64,000 bases of DNA from positions 17,866 through 81,865 of the forward strand of contig JAFWSI010000063.1 of assembly GCA_017519415.1 (NCBI GenBank). Reading direction: 5' to 3'. This document shows positions 20,947 to 43,909 of this stretch, piece by piece (within the stretch, counting starts at the first letter, position 1; each line of letters opens with the position of its first letter). This stretch comes from Ruminococcus sp. (lineage in GTDB: Bacteria; Bacillota; Clostridia; Oscillospirales; Ruminococcaceae). A program made the position numbers and the translations under genes. The notes beneath the pieces were generated by a model. The model was not told where the DNA came from. It saw nothing but the letters and a program-made list of their open reading frames with translations, and did not search any database.

Positions 20947-21882
20947 ATGAAGAAGAATGCTTTAAAGAGTGCTTTTTGCGCACTCGCAGTTTCAGCTGTA
21001 GCTCTTTCAGCAACTGCTGTATCAGCACTTGCTGCAGGTCCTGCAAAGAACGCTGATGCTTACGATTTAAAGGGCCTTGATCCTTCAAAGGCAGCAACAA
21101 AGCCCACTATCTCACTGAGCCAGATCACTCTTACAGAGGCTGAGGCTAAGGCTAACCCCACACAGAAGATCGAGCTCAAGGTTAGCGGCGCTGAGGGCAA
21201 GTATGCTCCTACAGGTTTCCACATCACATATGATGAGAGACTCACAATCAAGAAGACTTCCACAGGCAGATTCGCAAAGAAGGGCGACGCAGGTGAGGAG
21301 CTCGGACAGGATCAGACAGCTAACGGAACACACGGTTTCTTCCTTACAACCGACGGTTCTGATAACTACGGTCTTGACGGTGTTCTCTGGTCATTTGAGC
21401 TTACACTTCCTTCTGACGCTAAGGCTGGTGACAAGTATCCTGTAGAGATCGAGTACAGATCTACAGAGAACGCTAAGGACCTTTTCACAAACCGTCAGCA
21501 GGATAACGAGGGTCAGCTCATGCAGGCCTGGGTATTCACACAGGGTATCGAGCAGGGCTACATCGAGATCGAGGGCGGCACAACAACTACTACAACAGCT
21601 ACTACAACATCTACATCTACTTCAACTTCTACATCTACATCTACAAGCACATCCACATCTACAAGCACCTCCACATCTACTTCTACAACTACAAGCGGTT
21701 CCGGTACAACAACTACAACTACCAAGAAGCCTGTAACAACAACTTCTACAACTAAGAAGGCAACAACAACAACCAAGAAGGGTGATTCACCCAAGACTGG
21801 TGACGTTGGCGCAGGCGTAGCAGTTGCTGGTCTCGCTGTCGCAGTAGGTACAGCATTTGCTCTCAGAAAGAAGGAAGACTAA
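20947..21882 (+). CDS. scaE: ScaE, sortase-anchored cohesin that holds the cellulosome on the cell wall
   Basis: A 311-residue surface protein: signal peptide (1-30), one cohesin (about 45-205; KIELKVSGAEGKYAPTGFHITY), a Thr/Ser linker with long TST repeats (about 215-275), then a cell-wall sorting signal with SPKTG (LPXTG-like), a hydrophobic stretch and the tail RKKED. In the known system this cohesin binds the X-dockerins of ScaB and CttA, so ScaE links the whole complex and the cellulose-binding protein to peptidoglycan. SPKTG instead of LPKTG is a variant that the local sortase must accept; no sortase gene is in this window. Ribosome-binding site GAAAGGA. Confidence 0.93.
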   Translation: MKKNALKSAFCALAVSAVALSATAVSALAAGPAKNADAYDLKGLDPSKAATKPTISLSQITLTEAEAKANPTQKIELKVSGAEGKYAPTGFHITYDERLTIKKTSTGRFAKKGDAGEELGQDQTANGTHGFFLTTDGSDNYGLDGVLWSFELTLPSDAKAGDKYPVEIEYRSTENAKDLFTNRQQDNEGQLMQAWVFTQGIEQGYIEIEGGTTTTTTATTTSTSTSTSTSTSTSTSTSTSTSTSTSTTTSGSGTTTTTTKKPVTTTSTTKKATTTTKKGDSPKTGDVGAGVAVAGLAVAVGTAFALRKKED

Positions 21883-36798: not shown

Positions 36799-37179
36799 AT
36801 GAAAAATGTATTCAGAAAGGCCGTAGCAGCGGTCGTGGCATTCACCCTCCTCGGCGCAGGAACAGCATTCACAAATACGGTTTCTTCAAAGCAAAGCTCT
36901 GTTACGGCAACTGCCGCAAGTATTTCCCCAAGTCAGTGTACTTCTCATGGACAGTTTGTTAAACATGATAAAGCAATATATAGAAGGTATGAATGGCGTG
37001 ATAAAGATTATGATTATGAGTGTAACAAAGTAACGCAGGAAGAATACTATGTTGTTAATGTATATGATGTATCATATTGCAAAGCTTGTGGATATATAGT
37101 AAAAAGTCAAAAAAATGTTTCTGAATCTTCTGTAAGGCGTACTGGAAAAACAAGAAAACTTAAGATAATTTGGCGATAA
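36799..37179 (+). CDS. Small secreted ribbon-like protein, paralog 1 of 5
   Basis: 126 residues. Lys/Arg start and hydrophobic core (VAAVVAFTLLGAGTAF) form a signal peptide; the segment up to TATAAS is shared by the paralogs. The mature part has CTSHGQFVKH and YCKACGYIV, that is C/H-x-x-H followed about 60 residues later by CxxCG, a zinc-ribbon-like ligand set, with Tyr-rich sequence between. I do not recognise the family. It is the first and most divergent long-tailed member of a five-gene tandem array in one orientation; AAAGAAGG precedes the ATG. Confidence 0.8.
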   Translation: MKNVFRKAVAAVVAFTLLGAGTAFTNTVSSKQSSVTATAASISPSQCTSHGQFVKHDKAIYRRYEWRDKDYDYECNKVTQEEYYVVNVYDVSYCKACGYIVKSQKNVSESSVRRTGKTRKLKIIWR

Positions 37180-37201
37180 GTAGATAAAGGAAGTGGAAAA
37201 A

Positions 37202-37579
37202 ATGAAAAATGTATTCAGAAAACTCACAGCGACCGCTATGGCATTCACCCTCCTCGGCGCGGGAACAACATTCGCAAATACGGTCTCTCCCAAGACAGAT
37301 GCATTAACAGCGTCCGCTGCAACAGTTGAGCCCAATTCTCCTCACAATCACGGACAGTTTGTTTATCACACAAAAGAAGTAAGTGAATACTCAGTGCCTG
37401 TTAAAGGTCAGTATTGGTTCACGACAGTGACTTATGGCCGCAGATATTATCACAATGAATATGATGTGGTACGCTGTCAGGCCTGCGGCGGTGTGGTGAA
37501 GAAGACGCTTACATCTTCTTCTACCCGGTATGAGGATTATTCATATCTATTCAGAAGCCAAAAACCATACATAGTTTAA
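37202..37579 (+). CDS. Small secreted ribbon-like protein, paralog 2 of 5
   Basis: 125 residues. Same signal peptide as its neighbours (AFTLLGAGTTFANTVSPK, then LTASAAT). Here the first ligand pair is histidine (SPHNHGQFVYH) and the second is CQACGGVVKKT. It is highly similar to paralog 3 along the whole length (KEVSEYSVPVKG, then YEDYS), so the two arose by recent duplication. Start 37202 follows AAAGGAAG; an in-frame GTG at 37193 is rejected. Confidence 0.8.
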   Translation: MKNVFRKLTATAMAFTLLGAGTTFANTVSPKTDALTASAATVEPNSPHNHGQFVYHTKEVSEYSVPVKGQYWFTTVTYGRRYYHNEYDVVRCQACGGVVKKTLTSSSTRYEDYSYLFRSQKPYIV

Positions 37580-37591
37580 GGAAGTGGAAAA

Positions 37592-37960
37592 ATGAAAAAT
37601 GTATTCAGAAAGCTCACAGCGGCGGTCATGGCATTCACCCTCCTCGGCGCAGGAACGACATTCACAAATACGGTTTCTCCTAAGACAAACGCATTAACAG
37701 CGTCAGCTGCAACAGTTGATCCCAATACTCCTCACAATCACGGACAGTGTGTTTATCACACAAGAGAAGTAAGTGAATACTCAGTGCCTGTTAAAGGAAC
37801 GTTTATGTTCAGGACAGTGGTTTATGGCCGCACATATTATTTCAATGTATATGATGTGGTCCGCTGTCAGGCCTGCGGCGGTGTGGTGAAGAGGACGCTT
37901 ACATATACTGATTCCTGGTATGAGGATTATTCAGCTTTCTATACATATAGAAGATATTAA
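37592..37960 (+). CDS. Small secreted ribbon-like protein, paralog 3 of 5
   Basis: 122 residues, the sister of paralog 2, with TPHNHGQCVYH and YDVVRCQACGGVVKRT. An extra Cys replaces Phe after HGQ. It starts 12 bp after paralog 2 with the same AAGGAAG site. Conserved Tyr residues around the CxxCG (YYFNVYDVV, WYEDYS) may be structural. Confidence 0.8.
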   Translation: MKNVFRKLTAAVMAFTLLGAGTTFTNTVSPKTNALTASAATVDPNTPHNHGQCVYHTREVSEYSVPVKGTFMFRTVVYGRTYYFNVYDVVRCQACGGVVKRTLTYTDSWYEDYSAFYTYRRY

Positions 37961-37981
37961 TGATCTAAAGAGAGGTGTAAA

Positions 37982-38326
37982 ATGAAAAACTTATTCAAAA
38001 AGGCCGCTGCGGCGGTCATGGCATTCACCCTCCTCGGCGCGGTAACGACATTCACAAATAAGGTTTCTTCAAAGCCGGGCGTACTTACAGCAGCGGCCGC
38101 TGACACCGCCAAAGTCAAATGTACCTGTCATGGACAGTACGTCTGGCATAAACCATTGCCGTTCAGTTATGATAAAAAAGTAAAAGAAGTAGTCATTGGC
38201 GCCCATTATCGCTATGAGACGTACTACACGGTGCACGTTGAATCCAAATACGATGTGACATACTGTCGGGCTTGCGGAGAAATAGTAAATAAAACGGAAA
38301 TCTATTATCGTGAATACAGAATATGA
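37982..38326 (+). CDS. Small secreted ribbon-like protein, paralog 4 of 5
   Basis: 114 residues. Signal peptide as in the others (AVMAFTLLGAVTTFTNKVSSK), then CTCHGQYVWH and KYDVTYCRACGEIVNKT. This copy has the clearest four-cysteine set (CxC plus CxxC). Ribosome-binding site AGAGAGG; 21 bp after paralog 3. Confidence 0.8.
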   Translation: MKNLFKKAAAAVMAFTLLGAVTTFTNKVSSKPGVLTAAAADTAKVKCTCHGQYVWHKPLPFSYDKKVKEVVIGAHYRYETYYTVHVESKYDVTYCRACGEIVNKTEIYYREYRI

Positions 38327-38349
38327 ATTAATGTAACGGAGGAATAAAA

Positions 38350-38823
38350 ATGAAAAACGTAATTAAAAAGATCGCAAGCATTGCTATGGCATTTATTCTT
38401 CTCGGCACAGGAACAGCTCTGACAAAAAAGATCTCGCCCGGCATACAGACTATACTGACCGCAAGCGCTGCAACATGTACGAAATGCCACGGCGGCAGTT
38501 ATTGGGTGACCTCTACATCCCAGCAGGTAGGATCGCATGTGACGGTGTATCATTACACCTGCGGACTTTGCGGCAATGAATGGACATCAGCCTGCTGCAA
38601 TCACGGAAAAGAAAGAAGATATACATCTGACTGGGAGTACGTCGGTGCGCCGGAATGCAAAAGCTGGTATCTGTGGTCGTATAATTATTCAAAGAGTTAC
38701 GAGAATTACTGTCCTTACTGCAATAAGGTATTAGCGTACGGCAAACGTTACAAGCATGTCAAATGGAACACATTCCTCGGAGTAAGCACTCAATATGAAG
38801 ATGATAAGCCAAGTGCTTACTGA
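38350..38823 (+). CDS. Small secreted protein with three CxxC pairs, paralog 5 of 5
   Basis: 157 residues. The N-terminus (MAFILLGTGTALTKKISPG, then LTASAA) clearly belongs to the family, but the mature part is longer and has more cysteines: TCTKCHGGSYW, YTCGLCGNEW, CCNHGKERRY and NYCPYCNKVLAYG. This looks like two ribbon modules. It ends the array and is followed by a terminator. The function is unknown. Confidence 0.8.
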   Translation: MKNVIKKIASIAMAFILLGTGTALTKKISPGIQTILTASAATCTKCHGGSYWVTSTSQQVGSHVTVYHYTCGLCGNEWTSACCNHGKERRYTSDWEYVGAPECKSWYLWSYNYSKSYENYCPYCNKVLAYGKRYKHVKWNTFLGVSTQYEDDKPSAY

Positions 38824-40603: not shown

Positions 40604-40632
40604 AAAAAAAGGCTCCCGTCAAGGGAGCCTTC
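40604..40632 (-). terminator. Terminator of the cohesin-like lipoprotein gene
   Basis: On the minus strand GGCTCCC-ttgac-GGGAGCC followed by TTTTTTT. Confidence 0.82.
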
Positions 40633-40639
40633 AGTTATT

Positions 40640-41509
40640 TTAGTTGGGTTTCTTGCCGATGTCGGCAGAGCCGTTTGAAGCCTCTGCGAATTCGCCTGCG
40701 GGCATGAGCTTTACGACCTCCATAGCGTTTGCGTCGTAGTATACCCAGACGAGGATAGCTGCGAGACCGGGGTTGTTCTTGAGGTTGATGTAGTAATCAA
40801 CTGTATCGCCGGCCTTGGCGGAAACGTTGTCGCCGTAAGCCACGAAGCCTGTCTCCGAGGAAACGTTCTGAGCCTCGATTGAGCCGCCTACTCTGATGTT
40901 ACCCTGGATAACCTTGTCGGGAGGAGTGGAAACGCCTGTCACGCTGGAGAAATCAGGAGTAAATCTTACGGGATAATCCTTGTCGGGGATATTGTCCTTG
41001 AGCTTGAAGGTGATCTTGATGAACTTGTCATTGAAGATGTAGTCGGAATCCTTTGATATATCCACCCAGAGGCAGTATCTGCTCTCCATCTTGCTCTTGT
41101 AGCCGGAAGCGTCGGAAGCCTGAGTGGGCTTGGTAACGATCTGTGTTACCACCTTGCCGTTGGCGTCGGTAGCCTTTTCGCCGTTTGCCTCGGTCACCTC
41201 AACGATCTCTGTAGCGGGCTCCTTTGAAACGGGATCCGCAGAATTGAGATCCACGTCCGGATCGGGAGGAGTCAGACCGCTGTTGGCGAGATCCTCGGGA
41301 GAGCCTGTCTGGAATGGGGTGCCGACGATATTTCCGTCCTCGTTGACGATATGATCGAGGTTATCGTCCATATTATTACCCGCAGATGCGGATGACTGAC
41401 CGCCCTTGCCGCTGTTGCCGCTGTTCGAGCCCGAGCATGAAGCAACGGAGGAAACAGCCACACAGGCAACTGCTGTCAGAGCTATAATTCTTTTCCTTAT
41501 ATTACTCAT
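40640..41509 (-). CDS. Lipoprotein with apparently circularly permuted cohesin-like domain
   Basis: 289 residues. Signal peptide with lipobox VASC (Cys near residue 25), a long Ser/Gly/Asn/Asp linker (to about 140), then a beta domain. The domain reads in swapped order: first the sequence that normally ends a cohesin (DKFIKITFKLKDNIPDKDYP, then VRFTPDFSSVTG and QGNIRV), then the sequence that normally begins one (VSAKAGDTVDYYINLKNNPG, then LAAILVWVYYDANAMEVV). So the protein looks like a cohesin cut and rejoined at its termini. No dockerin. Start 41509 has GAAAGGA eight to nine bases upstream; a longer frame from 41539 lacks a site. Binding activity is not predictable. Confidence 0.78.
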   Translation of the reverse strand: MSNIRKRIIALTAVACVAVSSVASCSGSNSGNSGKGGQSSASAGNNMDDNLDHIVNEDGNIVGTPFQTGSPEDLANSGLTPPDPDVDLNSADPVSKEPATEIVEVTEANGEKATDANGKVVTQIVTKPTQASDASGYKSKMESRYCLWVDISKDSDYIFNDKFIKITFKLKDNIPDKDYPVRFTPDFSSVTGVSTPPDKVIQGNIRVGGSIEAQNVSSETGFVAYGDNVSAKAGDTVDYYINLKNNPGLAAILVWVYYDANAMEVVKLMPAGEFAEASNGSADIGKKPN

Positions 41510-41577: not shown

Positions 41578-41606
41578 ATTATACACAAGCCGCAAGGATT
41601 TGTCAA
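41578..41606 (-). promoter_or_regulatory. Consensus promoter of the cohesin-like lipoprotein gene
   Basis: On the minus strand TTGACA (41601-41606), 17 bp, TATAAT (41578-41583). Confidence 0.72.
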
Positions 41607-41794: not shown

Positions 41795-41860
41795 TATATA
41801 GTGTGTTTTGAAAATGTTTTTGATCTCAGGATCAACACTGATGAGGGAAGGACATTAAAA

Positions 41861-43909
41861 ATGAATAAAAAGGCGATAGCGCTGATAACATCTGCGGTCA
41901 TGCTGCTGACGGGTGTATCATGCGCCAAGAAAGGCGGGACTTCTGCGCGGTCGGAAAGAAAAAAAGACAGTGCCACGCAGACAAGTACGACCGCTGTGAC
42001 CGAGGAGGAAACTACACAGATGGCGACCGAGCACATCAGCCCAGTTGAGACCGTTTCGGCGTCCCTCGGCTCTCAGATAACCGCAGACAGGACTATCGGA
42101 AGAGCCCAGGGAAGCAATACTATCAAATTTCCCCTTGCCGACCTTATCGAGGACGGCGACAGGGTAAATTCGTTCACCTTTACGATCTATTCGGGCAATG
42201 GCGGCGATATAGGCGAATATAAGGGGGGCTGCGGCATATCCGTTGACGCGGACTGCGCAGCAGCGACCAACGAGGGCTGGTATCAGTCCCCGGATTTCAC
42301 AGCACCCACTCAGGGCTCCTACGGGGAGATAACATGGAACGTTCCCGAGGAGCTGAAGGATCATATCCATGCGGCAGGCGAGGTGCTTTTCGGGTACTGG
42401 TGGGGCAACTGTGACAGTATAAGGATAGAGAACGTGATATGCTCATTCGAGAGGAAGCGGGAAGTGCCCGTTGACGGAATGGGCATAGCAAAGGCGGAAA
42501 AGAGCGTAGAGTATTCCGCAGCCGACAATAAGATAAAGGTACCTCTCGACTTCATACCCGCAGGCACGGTGCCCGAGGTAGTGACCTTCAGCGTCAGGTC
42601 GTCGGGTCCCTTCGGAAAGTATACGGGAGCCTTCGGCATAAGCTCCTCGGCGGGAGAGTATATGTCGGGGGATACGGCAGTATTCACCGAAAGCTCCGAG
42701 CTTGAGCTCACATGGTTCGTGCCGGACGCAGCCAAGGGCTACATGGCCGAGAACAATGAGCTGGTGCTGGGCTACTGGTGGAGCAGACAGCCCTCCGTCG
42801 AGCTGGATACGGTCTCCGTAAAGTACAGCCTCGGCACAGGGGACTATCCGAAGCCCAGACCCGTTCAGGACACAACTGTTGCCACAGAGCCCGCCACAAA
42901 GGACGGCGGCTTCCGCAGCGCAAAAGAGATAGTGTCACAGATAAAAATAGGCTGGAATCTGGGTAATACCCTTGAGAGCTACGATACGGGCAGCACAGGG
43001 CTCCAGACCGAGACGGGCTGGGGCAACCCGAAGACTACGGGAGACATTGTAAAGTCCGTAAAGGCAGCCGGCTTCAACGCGATAAGGATACCCGTAACGT
43101 GGAGCGAGCATACCACCGGCGACAGCATCAGCAAGGCATGGCTCGACCGCGTTCAGGAGGTCGTTGACTATGCATACCGCGAGGGACTTTTCGTAGTGCT
43201 GAATATGCACCACGACGATTATATATGGTTCAGGCCTCAGCAGAGCGAGTATGAAAGCATAAGCTCGAGGTATACTAAGATATGGTCGCAGATATGCGAA
43301 CGCTTTGCGGACTATGACGACAGGCTCATATTCGAGGGAATGAACGAGCCGAGGACAGTGGGCTCCGCAATGGAATGGATGGGCGGCACTCACGAGGAGC
43401 GCGAGGTGCTCAACAAATACATCAGGGACTTTGTTGATACAGTCCGCGGAACAGGCGGAAAGAACGCCGAAAGAACGCTGATAGTCACATCCTATGCGGC
43501 GTCGGCCGACAGCATAGCTCTCAACGAGGTATCCGTACCAGGCGGCGGAAACATCGTATTCTCGGTGCATTATTACGCTCCTTGGAGCTTTGCCGAGGGC
43601 AAGCAGACAGTATTCGACAACAACAGCAGAACGGAGCTCGACGGCAAATTCGACGAGCTCAAGCGAAAGTTCATAGACAAGGGAATACCCGTTCTCATAG
43701 ACGAATTCGGCTGCGTTCACGGAGCCGACGAGGAGACCCGCTGCGCATACTACACCTACTATATAAGCTCTGCCAAGGCCCGGGGCATCAAGTGCTTCGT
43801 ATGGGACAACAGCAAGATGAGCGGCGATTCCAGCTTCGGTATCTTCAACAGGAACGGAATGACATGGGACGGGAACATACTGGCCGCCATAATGGAGGGT
43901 GCAAGGTAA
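41861..43909 (+). CDS. Membrane-anchored GH5 endo-beta-glucanase with two carbohydrate-binding-like modules
   Basis: 682 residues. Lipobox TGVSC (Cys21), Ser/Thr linker, two related beta modules (about 65-190 and 200-310), each with GYWW near the end (LFGYWWGNCDSIRIENV; LGYWWSRQPSVELDTV), then a GH5 catalytic domain (about 330-682). The latter shows IGWNLGNTLE, GFNAIRIPVTWSEH, VLNMHHDDY, the acid/base Glu in EGMNEPRT, HYYAPWSF and the nucleophile Glu in LIDEFGCVH; GWNLGNTLE suggests subfamily 4 (endoglucanase/xyloglucanase-like). There is no dockerin, so this cellulase is held on the membrane rather than in the cellulosome. Ribosome-binding site GGGAAGGA. Confidence 0.9.
   Translation: MNKKAIALITSAVMLLTGVSCAKKGGTSARSERKKDSATQTSTTAVTEEETTQMATEHISPVETVSASLGSQITADRTIGRAQGSNTIKFPLADLIEDGDRVNSFTFTIYSGNGGDIGEYKGGCGISVDADCAAATNEGWYQSPDFTAPTQGSYGEITWNVPEELKDHIHAAGEVLFGYWWGNCDSIRIENVICSFERKREVPVDGMGIAKAEKSVEYSAADNKIKVPLDFIPAGTVPEVVTFSVRSSGPFGKYTGAFGISSSAGEYMSGDTAVFTESSELELTWFVPDAAKGYMAENNELVLGYWWSRQPSVELDTVSVKYSLGTGDYPKPRPVQDTTVATEPATKDGGFRSAKEIVSQIKIGWNLGNTLESYDTGSTGLQTETGWGNPKTTGDIVKSVKAAGFNAIRIPVTWSEHTTGDSISKAWLDRVQEVVDYAYREGLFVVLNMHHDDYIWFRPQQSEYESISSRYTKIWSQICERFADYDDRLIFEGMNEPRTVGSAMEWMGGTHEEREVLNKYIRDFVDTVRGTGGKNAERTLIVTSYAASADSIALNEVSVPGGGNIVFSVHYYAPWSFAEGKQTVFDNNSRTELDGKFDELKRKFIDKGIPVLIDEFGCVHGADEETRCAYYTYYISSAKARGIKCFVWDNSKMSGDSSFGIFNRNGMTWDGNILAAIMEGAR

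What the first reader, a model, noticed from the sequence alone, without database searches (positions are those of the whole stretch)
40640..41509. Lipoprotein with a circularly permuted cohesin-like domain
C-terminal cohesin strands (ITFKLKDNIPDKDYPVRF) come before N-terminal cohesin strands (AKAGDTVDYYINLKNNPG). The order is opposite to that of every scaffoldin cohesin in this window. A permuted, membrane-anchored cohesin in a cellulosome producer could be a new cell-surface receptor for dockerins or polysaccharide, or a decoy.
Basis: partly seen in the sequence, partly recalled or inferred. Interest (0 to 1): 0.72.

Follow-up and report, generated by a model that had tools for sequence, protein, structure and literature searches.

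The report
Membrane-anchored cohesin with swapped halves
A lipid-anchored surface protein of a fibre-degrading gut bacterium carries a cohesin, the socket module that holds cellulose-degrading enzymes together, but with its two halves joined in the opposite order; nearly all relatives in the genus keep this version, so it may be an overlooked docking site on the cell.

Summary
Window 40640-41509 (-) encodes a 289-aa lipoprotein whose C-terminal ~150 residues are a circularly permuted cohesin. Residues ~142-207 match the C-terminal half of cohesins (E 5e-11), residues ~227-275 the N-terminal half; swapping them in silico turns two partial alignments (scores 59, 65) into one over 124 of 131 columns (117). 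The swapped order is seen in 80 of 80 family domains. AlphaFold gives one compact domain (pLDDT 95) whose strands match an ordinary cohesin only after rotation by five elements. The gene is genus-core: 112 of 120 genomes, 65 of 65 good-quality ones; in 19 outside-genus loci opened, the cohesins are in normal order or partial. Most members are lipoproteins; four distinct paralogues carry an N-terminal dockerin (one below Pfam's cut-off), one has PASTA repeats. A Coh-Coh-dockerin protein of the same genome looks like the precursor type. Best reading: a cell-surface docking module derived from tandem cohesins, with a conserved, rebuilt binding face. Its ligand (dockerin, other protein or glycan) is untested. 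My searches found no report of a natural permuted cohesin. New variant of a known kind.

The parts
40640..41509 (-). lipoprotein gene, 289 aa, apparently a single-gene transcription unit
   Evidence: ORF and translation; family found in 112 of 120 genus genomes; promoter-like and terminator-like sites
41435..41509 (-). signal peptide and lipobox (SVAS-C25); C25 is the predicted lipidation site
   Evidence: C25 invariant in 27 aligned rows (26 relatives and this protein); loose lipobox pattern in 78 of 80 loci, the other two carry a dockerin instead
41102..41434 (-). low-complexity Ser/Thr/Asp-rich stalk with TEIVEVTEANGEKATDANG-type repeats
   Evidence: sequence and alignment; replaced by coiled-coil-like or PASTA stretches in some paralogues
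40889..41089 (-). cohesin C-terminal half, strands 5-9 (aa 141-207)
   Evidence: hhalign to cohesin columns 65-128, E 4.9e-11; matches C-halves of 4ums and 5n5p (E 0.006); strands at domain residues 10-18, 30-39, 46-57, 68-70, 72-76
40844..40888 (-). 15-residue connector joining strand 9 to strand 1
   Evidence: length 14-17 residues in 74 of 74 members
40652..40843 (-). cohesin N-terminal half, strands 1-4 (aa 223-286)
   Evidence: Pfam PF00963 at aa 227-279, 29 bits, cut-off 24.1; matches N-halves of 4dh2, 1aoh, 3kcp; strands at domain residues 92-100, 105-113, 120-128, 132-139, 152-155
41066..41068 (-). Trp148 (strand 5), invariant in the family
   Evidence: 74 of 74 members
40739..40747 (-). 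Trp255 to Tyr257 (strand 3), family-specific residues at positions that in 1aoh follow Asn37/Asp39 on the same side of the strand
   Evidence: W 73 of 74, Y 69 of 74; alignment to 1aoh
41578..41606 (-). promoter-like site TTGACA-17-TATAAT
   Evidence: 12 of 12 consensus match
40608..40632 (-). intrinsic-terminator-like hairpin just after the stop codon
   Evidence: 10-pair stem and T tail

Best explanation
It is a natural circular permutation of a cohesin. An ancestral tandem pair (Coh-Coh) lost the first half of the first copy and the second half of the second, leaving strands 5-6-7-8-9 joined by a ~15-residue connector to strands 1-2-3-4, so the chain ends now lie between the old strands 4 and 5. 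SHOWN by computation: homology of both halves to cohesins, swapped order, one confident single-domain model, genus-wide conservation, the module on different anchors. INFERRED: the route of origin; that the domain is lipid-anchored in the membrane and carried into or through the cell wall by the stalk; and that the former dockerin-binding sheet (strands 3 and 5, with W148, W255, Y257) holds a conserved partner there. The most likely partner is a dockerin-bearing or other secreted cellulosomal protein, held at the membrane during export and assembly or as an extra cell-attachment route beside ScaE. Paralogues with an N-terminal dockerin would carry the same socket into the cellulosome as adaptor scaffoldins.
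For: Profile tests with shuffle controls and a cut-site scan that peaks at domain residues 80-92. Swapped order in 80 of 80 family domains and in 21 of 21 family proteins on L206-L223, 18 of them not among the 80. PDB profile search: second part hits N-halves, first part hits C-halves, both in swapped order within 1aoh and 3kcp, there with a weak second stretch (3.7 and 8.9 bits). AlphaFold pLDDT 95, pTM 0.89. Secondary-structure rotation test: 1.2 residues mean discrepancy at the right rotation, 3.5-5.05 at the other ten. Genus-core: 112 of 120, 65 of 65 good genomes; all 120 have dockerin matches, 119 a cohesin match, which may include this gene. Dockerin fusions L070, L076, L208 and, below the cut-off, L206; PASTA and coiled-coil-like stalks L220, L207, L214. 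Coh-Coh-Doc protein in the same genome (L226): the permuted model fits across its junction at 36.5 bits, with 17 residues between the two cohesin hits. On strand 3 the positions on the dockerin-contact side are more conserved (3.92 bits) than the alternate ones (2.52). The family rows are one clade, 100/99 support.
Against: No binding or localisation data exist for it here. The Asn37/Asp39 positions that contact the dockerin Ser/Thr motif in a studied type I cohesin (PMC5772552, passages) are Ala and mostly Leu/Cys/Val here, so classical type I recognition is unlikely. Exposed Trp/Tyr would also suit a glycan ligand, and exposure itself is inferred from strand alternation, not from coordinates. 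The gene lies about 19 kb from the window's sca cluster; cysK and an rrf2-type gene are the commonest shared neighbours (35 of 80 loci each), a GH5 gene is shared in 18 of 80, and the FD-1 locus (L060) shares none of the 16 genes compared; many loci are cut short. The tree does not resolve which cohesin is the parent. Model coordinates could not be superposed; Foldseek and VIA-align listed no cohesin, as expected for order-dependent alignment but not proof. The alignment behind the model is of close relatives (HH-suite Neff 2.7).
Confidence: 0.6

Rival explanations
1. The permuted domain has become a carbohydrate-binding module: exposed aromatic residues on strands 3 and 5 form a platform for cellulose, hemicellulose or a cell-wall glycan, and the lipoprotein tethers the cell to substrate or the stalk to the wall.
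Against: No CBM family is matched by any of 74 members in Pfam at E 0.01; the half-by-half homology is to cohesins. Dockerin fusions occur in scaffoldins and in CBM proteins alike, so they do not decide.
Confidence: 0.22
2. A cohesin-derived envelope protein without a cellulosomal ligand: it binds a membrane or wall protein (for example a secretion or wall-synthesis component) and serves general envelope function, which would explain its genus-core status.
For: Present in 65 of 65 good genus genomes, including genomes where few canonical cohesins were found, such as G282 (99% complete; 1 hit, 2); non-sca neighbours; a PASTA-stalk version.
Against: Dockerin-fused versions would place the module inside cellulosomes in four genomes; low cohesin counts in draft genomes may be assembly gaps at repeats.
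Confidence: 0.22
3. A decaying remnant: the junction piece of a broken tandem scaffoldin, two incomplete cohesins without a working fold.
For: The order is exactly that of a Coh-Coh junction.
Against: One confident domain; 54% mean column identity over 74 rows with 16 invariant columns; of 80 fetched loci only L071 looks frameshifted, by eye, though elsewhere two genome places carry one stop (G018:C97, G227:C5); own promoter-like and terminator-like sites.
Confidence: 0.02
4. A non-permuted family of similar beta-sandwich domains (CBM, BACON or Ig-like) that only resembles cohesin halves.
For: Foldseek and VIA-align list no cohesin.
Against: Both halves score on their own against cohesins, and Pfam names Cohesin in 74 of 74; the control cohesin from this window finds 117 PDB matches at E 0.001 or better with the same pipeline, so the missing match fits a changed strand order; rotation test.
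Confidence: 0.03

Closest known systems
Type III cohesins of R. flavefaciens ScaA/ScaB (e.g. PDB 5n5p, 5m2o)
   Same: Homologous in both halves; similar strand lengths and loops after rotation; same genome.
   Different: Strand order rotated; single copy; lipid anchor instead of scaffoldin context; different residues on the dockerin-binding face.
Coh-Coh-Doc scaffoldins such as the own-genome protein on L226 (ScaJ-like architecture, PMC5301203)
   Same: The permuted model fits across the junction of its two abutting cohesins (36.5 bits).
   Different: Two complete cohesins in normal order plus Thr-rich linker and C-terminal dockerin; low identity (25%).
Cell-surface anchoring scaffoldin ScaE (sortase-attached)
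   Same: Would be a cohesin displayed on the cell (function by analogy, inferred).
   Different: ScaE is attached by a sortase signal (PMC4081043 section 6); this is a predicted lipoprotein with a permuted domain.
Bi-modular adaptor scaffoldins (ScaC, ScaF, ScaH)
   Same: Paralogues L070, L076, L206, L208 combine one dockerin with one cohesin-type module.
   Different: Dockerin is N-terminal and the cohesin is permuted; the window protein has no dockerin.
Putative divergent cohesins of FD-1 and other strains (ScaK, ScaL, ScaM, ScaN, ScaP; dockerin-less single-cohesin scaffoldins)
   Same: The FD-1 orthologue (L060) and the 007c orthologue (L051) are 62.2% identical in the domain, close to the ~60% that PMC4081043 gives for such dockerin-less proteins, so this protein may be among them.
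   Different: The word 'permut' is not in the main text of PMC4081043 or PMC5301203; Table S1 could not be opened, so identity with one of these names is unsettled.

Membership tests
Cohesin domain (PF00963) | Sequence profile match above the curated cut-off | tested here: met
   29 bits against 24.1, but only over profile 6-59 of 139; 74 of 74 domain members match at E 0.01 or better
Cohesin domain (PF00963) | Complete set of the nine cohesin strands | tested here: met
   By prediction only: 11 strand elements pair one to one with those of an AlphaFold model of the window's ScaB cohesin after rotation; no superposition could be run
Cohesin domain (PF00963) | Canonical strand order 1 to 9 | tested here: not met
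   Order is 5-9 then 1-4 in 80 of 80; so it is a permuted cohesin, not a standard member
Cohesin domain (PF00963) | Binds a dockerin with high affinity | not testable with these tools
   No binding data; type I contact residues Asn37/Asp39 are replaced
Circularly permuted protein domain | Both parts independently homologous to one fold family in swapped order, and rejoining gives one alignment | tested here: met
   Scores 59, 65 and 117; shuffled first part at most 14.4 (30 shuffles) alone, at most 73.4 (30 shuffles) when rejoined
Circularly permuted protein domain | Folds as one compact domain | tested here: met
   AlphaFold prediction only: pLDDT 95, pTM 0.89
Bacterial lipoprotein | N-terminal signal peptide with lipobox cysteine | tested here: met
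   SVASC25; C25 invariant in 27 of 27 rows; 78 of 80 loci by a loose pattern; no dedicated predictor was available
Adaptor scaffoldin (cohesin plus dockerin) | Dockerin in the same polypeptide | tested here: not met
   Window protein: only Cohesin found. Met in paralogues L070, L076, L208 over the Pfam cut-off, L206 below it (19.9 against 22.9)
Carbohydrate-binding module (CBM3-like) | Sequence match to a CBM family | tested here: not met
   None among 74 members in Pfam at E 0.01
Carbohydrate-binding module (CBM3-like) | Structural match in strand order | tested here: inconclusive

The most novel reading that the evidence does not exclude
A naturally circularly permuted cohesin is a genus-core, membrane-anchored receptor for a class of R. 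flavefaciens dockerins or cellulosomal proteins whose partner is still unknown (for example LRR-protein dockerins that bound no tested cohesin on microarrays). Moving the chain ends next to the binding sheet changes how the bound partner is presented, giving a second cell-attachment or assembly route beside ScaE, and the dockerin-fused paralogues are a new class of adaptor scaffoldin.
Probability: 0.35. Interest if true: 0.85.

Novelty: new variant of a known kind. Interest (0 to 1): 0.72.

Why it matters
Cohesin-dockerin pairs are the joints of cellulosomes and widely used tools in protein assembly. A natural permuted cohesin shows the fold tolerates new chain ends, gives a ready template for reorienting the joint, and exposes a blind spot: profile searches see only part of it, and in FD-1 Pfam listed no cohesin for the full-length protein at E up to 1, although its isolated domain matches at E 0.01. 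If it binds dockerins, the attachment model of R. flavefaciens, in PMC5301203 the only rumen bacterium shown to have a definitive cellulosome, lacks a genus-wide component; that paper already lists cohesins left untested and dockerins without a partner, so the question can be tested directly.

Tried and rejected

Weak hits of the whole lipoprotein outside the genus (G044, G047, G055, E 0.002-0.008) were not pursued. Search of 291 genomes of the class with the domain profile: 34 genomes match, one of them the own genome. I opened 19 loci from 19 of the other 33: 34 of 37 cohesin hits are full-length in normal order and three are partial (a weak stretch on L192, one near the end of L195, a short second copy on L202); where the permuted model spans, it runs across ordinary neighbouring cohesins. 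The other 14 genomes were not opened.

Origin: the tree keeps the 15 family rows as one clade but leaves its sister unresolved. Low-cohesin genomes as a test of independence from the cellulosome: inconclusive because draft assemblies may break at repeats. L071 was dropped from the family count as frameshifted, judged by eye. Of 75 non-redundant rows, 74 went into A2; L110 was left out because what appears to be the same gene on L024 shows masked residues at the domain start. A1 took 26 of the relatives then in hand.

My first count of swapped order used whole proteins; 15 of 80 first hits ran into the stalk, so it was repeated on domains alone with the same result. Of the 21 family proteins on L206-L223, 3 are copies of proteins already among the 80.

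Papers: circularly permuted plus cohesin plus dockerin, 1 paper, listing only; cohesin module plus circular permutation plus cellulosome, 2 papers, listing only; a wider query listed 20 of 67, listing only; lipoprotein plus cohesin queries listed 12 of 12 and 15 of 25. No title or abstract start shown there reports a natural permuted cohesin. The main texts of PMC4081043 (section 6 read, word search), PMC5301203 (first part of sections 3 and 31, word search) and PMC2930009 (word search) do not contain 'permut'. Supplementary tables could not be opened.

Full report
OBSERVATION. The gene at 40640-41509 (-) encodes 289 residues. It has a 12-of-12 promoter match upstream and a terminator-like hairpin after the stop. 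The protein begins with a signal peptide ending in SVAS-Cys25; Cys25 is invariant in 27 aligned rows. A ~110-residue Ser/Thr/Asp-rich stalk follows, then a C-terminal domain. Pfam sees only residues 227-279, as the first 40% of a cohesin (29 bits, cut-off 24.1).

THE SWAP. I built a set of 59 cohesins from the window's ScaA, ScaB and ScaC and from other genomes of the class and aligned it by hhalign to the domain family (74 sequences, A2). In natural order only 49 columns align (family 96-144 to cohesin 3-51, score 65.8). The upstream part alone aligns to cohesin 65-128 with E 4.9e-11, score 59; 30 column shuffles of it reach at most 14.4. Moving the chain start to domain residue 88 gives one alignment over cohesin 3-128 (124 columns, score 117.5, E 1.2e-20). 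The score has its plateau at cuts 80-92, around the connector. With the upstream part shuffled, the rejoined score is at most 73.4 in 30 trials.

Independent support comes from solved structures: the family profile finds the N-terminal halves of 4dh2, 1aoh and 3kcp with its second part and the C-terminal halves of 4ums and 5n5p with its first (E 0.006); in 1aoh and 3kcp both stretches appear in swapped order, the first-part stretch weakly (3.7 and 8.9 bits). In single proteins, a cohesin HMM finds C-half then N-half in 80 of 80 family members (window plus 79 loci, one frameshifted locus dropped). In 15 of these the first hit ran into the stalk; on the domains alone the result is again 80 of 80, with no first hit starting before HMM column 57. 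In control ORFs 64 of 70 hits are full-length in normal order, 4 lie in frames cut by a locus end and 2 are this protein. On loci L206-L223 the swap is seen in 21 of 21 family proteins, 18 of them not among the 80.

DISTRIBUTION. The family is found in 112 of 120 genomes of the genus and in 65 of 65 that are at least 90% complete and at most 5% contaminated; all 120 have dockerin matches and 119 a cohesin match, which may include this gene. A scan of named genome contigs gave 117 relatives; the 80 kept are nearly all labelled Ruminococcus or R. flavefaciens, with a few generic or odd MAG labels; FD-1, 007c and ATCC 19208 are among them. In 291 genomes of the class, 34 match including the own genome; in 19 loci opened from 19 of the other 33, the matches are parts of ordinary or partial cohesins. 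The tree of 15 family rows and 62 cohesins keeps the family as one clade, 100/99. This fits one origin of the permutation in this genus, on what was sampled.

ARCHITECTURES. Of 80 loci, 78 show a lipobox-like start and 2 (L070 of strain YAD2003, L076 of ATCC 19208) have a signal peptide and an N-terminal dockerin instead (Pfam 32.7 and 34.1 bits, cut-off 22.9). Two further dockerin fusions are L208 (27.3 bits) and L206 (19.9, below the cut-off). L220 is a lipoprotein-like protein with three PASTA domains; L207 and L214 have coiled-coil-like stalks. The constant part is the permuted module; the variable part is how it is anchored.

ORIGIN (inferred). The own genome encodes a Coh-Coh-Thr-rich-dockerin protein (L226). 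The family profile fits across the junction of its two cohesins (residues 91-231, 36.5 bits); the two cohesin hits lie 17 residues apart, and the strand-to-strand connector in the permuted domain is 14-17 residues; the two lengths are not measured in the same way. Spans across junctions also occur in L225 and L228. This fits the duplication-and-truncation route to circular permutation (general knowledge), but the true parent is not resolved.

FUNCTION (inferred). Strands 3, 5 and 9 are the most conserved (mean 3.30, 3.21 and 3.19 bits). On strand 3 the positions that align with Asn37, Asp39, Val41 and Ser43 of 1aoh are A251, L253, W255 and Y257; this side is more conserved (3.92 bits) than the alternate positions (2.52), the reverse of what a purely structural strand would show. 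Asn37 and Asp39 contact the dockerin Ser/Thr motif in a studied type I pair (PMC5772552, passages). That these strands form the dockerin-binding sheet in cohesins generally, and that this side is exposed, is recalled or inferred, not tested. So a ligand site seems kept but rebuilt. A protein ligand of the cellulosome is favoured because of descent, the dockerin fusions and the genomic setting; a glycan is the main rival because of the Trp/Tyr residues. Against a tight functional link, the gene is outside the sca cluster and its neighbours vary: cysK and rrf2-type genes in 35 of 80 loci each, the GH5 gene in 18, none of the 16 compared in FD-1.

KNOWN WORK. [quoted passage not shown] PMC4081043 section 6 mentions dockerin-less single-cohesin proteins, ~60% similar between FD-1 and 007c; the orthologues here are 62.2% identical in the domain. 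This protein may therefore have been counted as a putative cohesin without its permutation being noted; the supplementary table was not available. My searches found no report of a natural permuted cohesin in this open-access library; subscription papers are not covered.

VERDICT. Permuted cohesin: about 0.95. Surface display by lipid anchor: about 0.85. Docking function for a cellulosomal protein: about 0.5. Interest 0.72.

Noticed in passing
window 41801-43909 (+): Divergently transcribed GH5 enzyme with its own lipobox-like N-terminus (GVSC) and two DUF5620 stretches, next to the permuted-cohesin gene in 18 of 80 loci: two predicted surface lipoproteins back to back.
   Followed up: partly
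window 36799-38823 (+): Five tandem small secreted proteins with CxxC-type motifs, apparent paralogues; three of the five were scanned and none passes a Pfam cut-off. Homologues of four of them were found in only 1 of 80 related loci (L047).
   Followed up: partly
L220:747-1937: Lipoprotein-like protein with three PASTA domains followed by a permuted cohesin, a possible peptidoglycan-binding stalk.
   Followed up: partly
L226:3-2123 (own genome, contig C2): Coh-Coh-Thr-rich-dockerin protein of ScaJ-like architecture; PMC4081043 described two-cohesin dockerin proteins as exclusive to FD-1 among its strains.
   Followed up: partly
L225:463-1836 and L227 (other genus genomes): Further tandem or multi-cohesin proteins in the genus; L225 has two cohesins and a dockerin, L227 carries three cohesin-bearing frames close together.
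   Followed up: no
window 20947-21882 (+): ScaE-like protein with sortase-type tail was not recognised by Pfam Cohesin at E 1 nor by my cohesin HMM, a reminder that divergent cohesins are missed by profiles.
   Followed up: no
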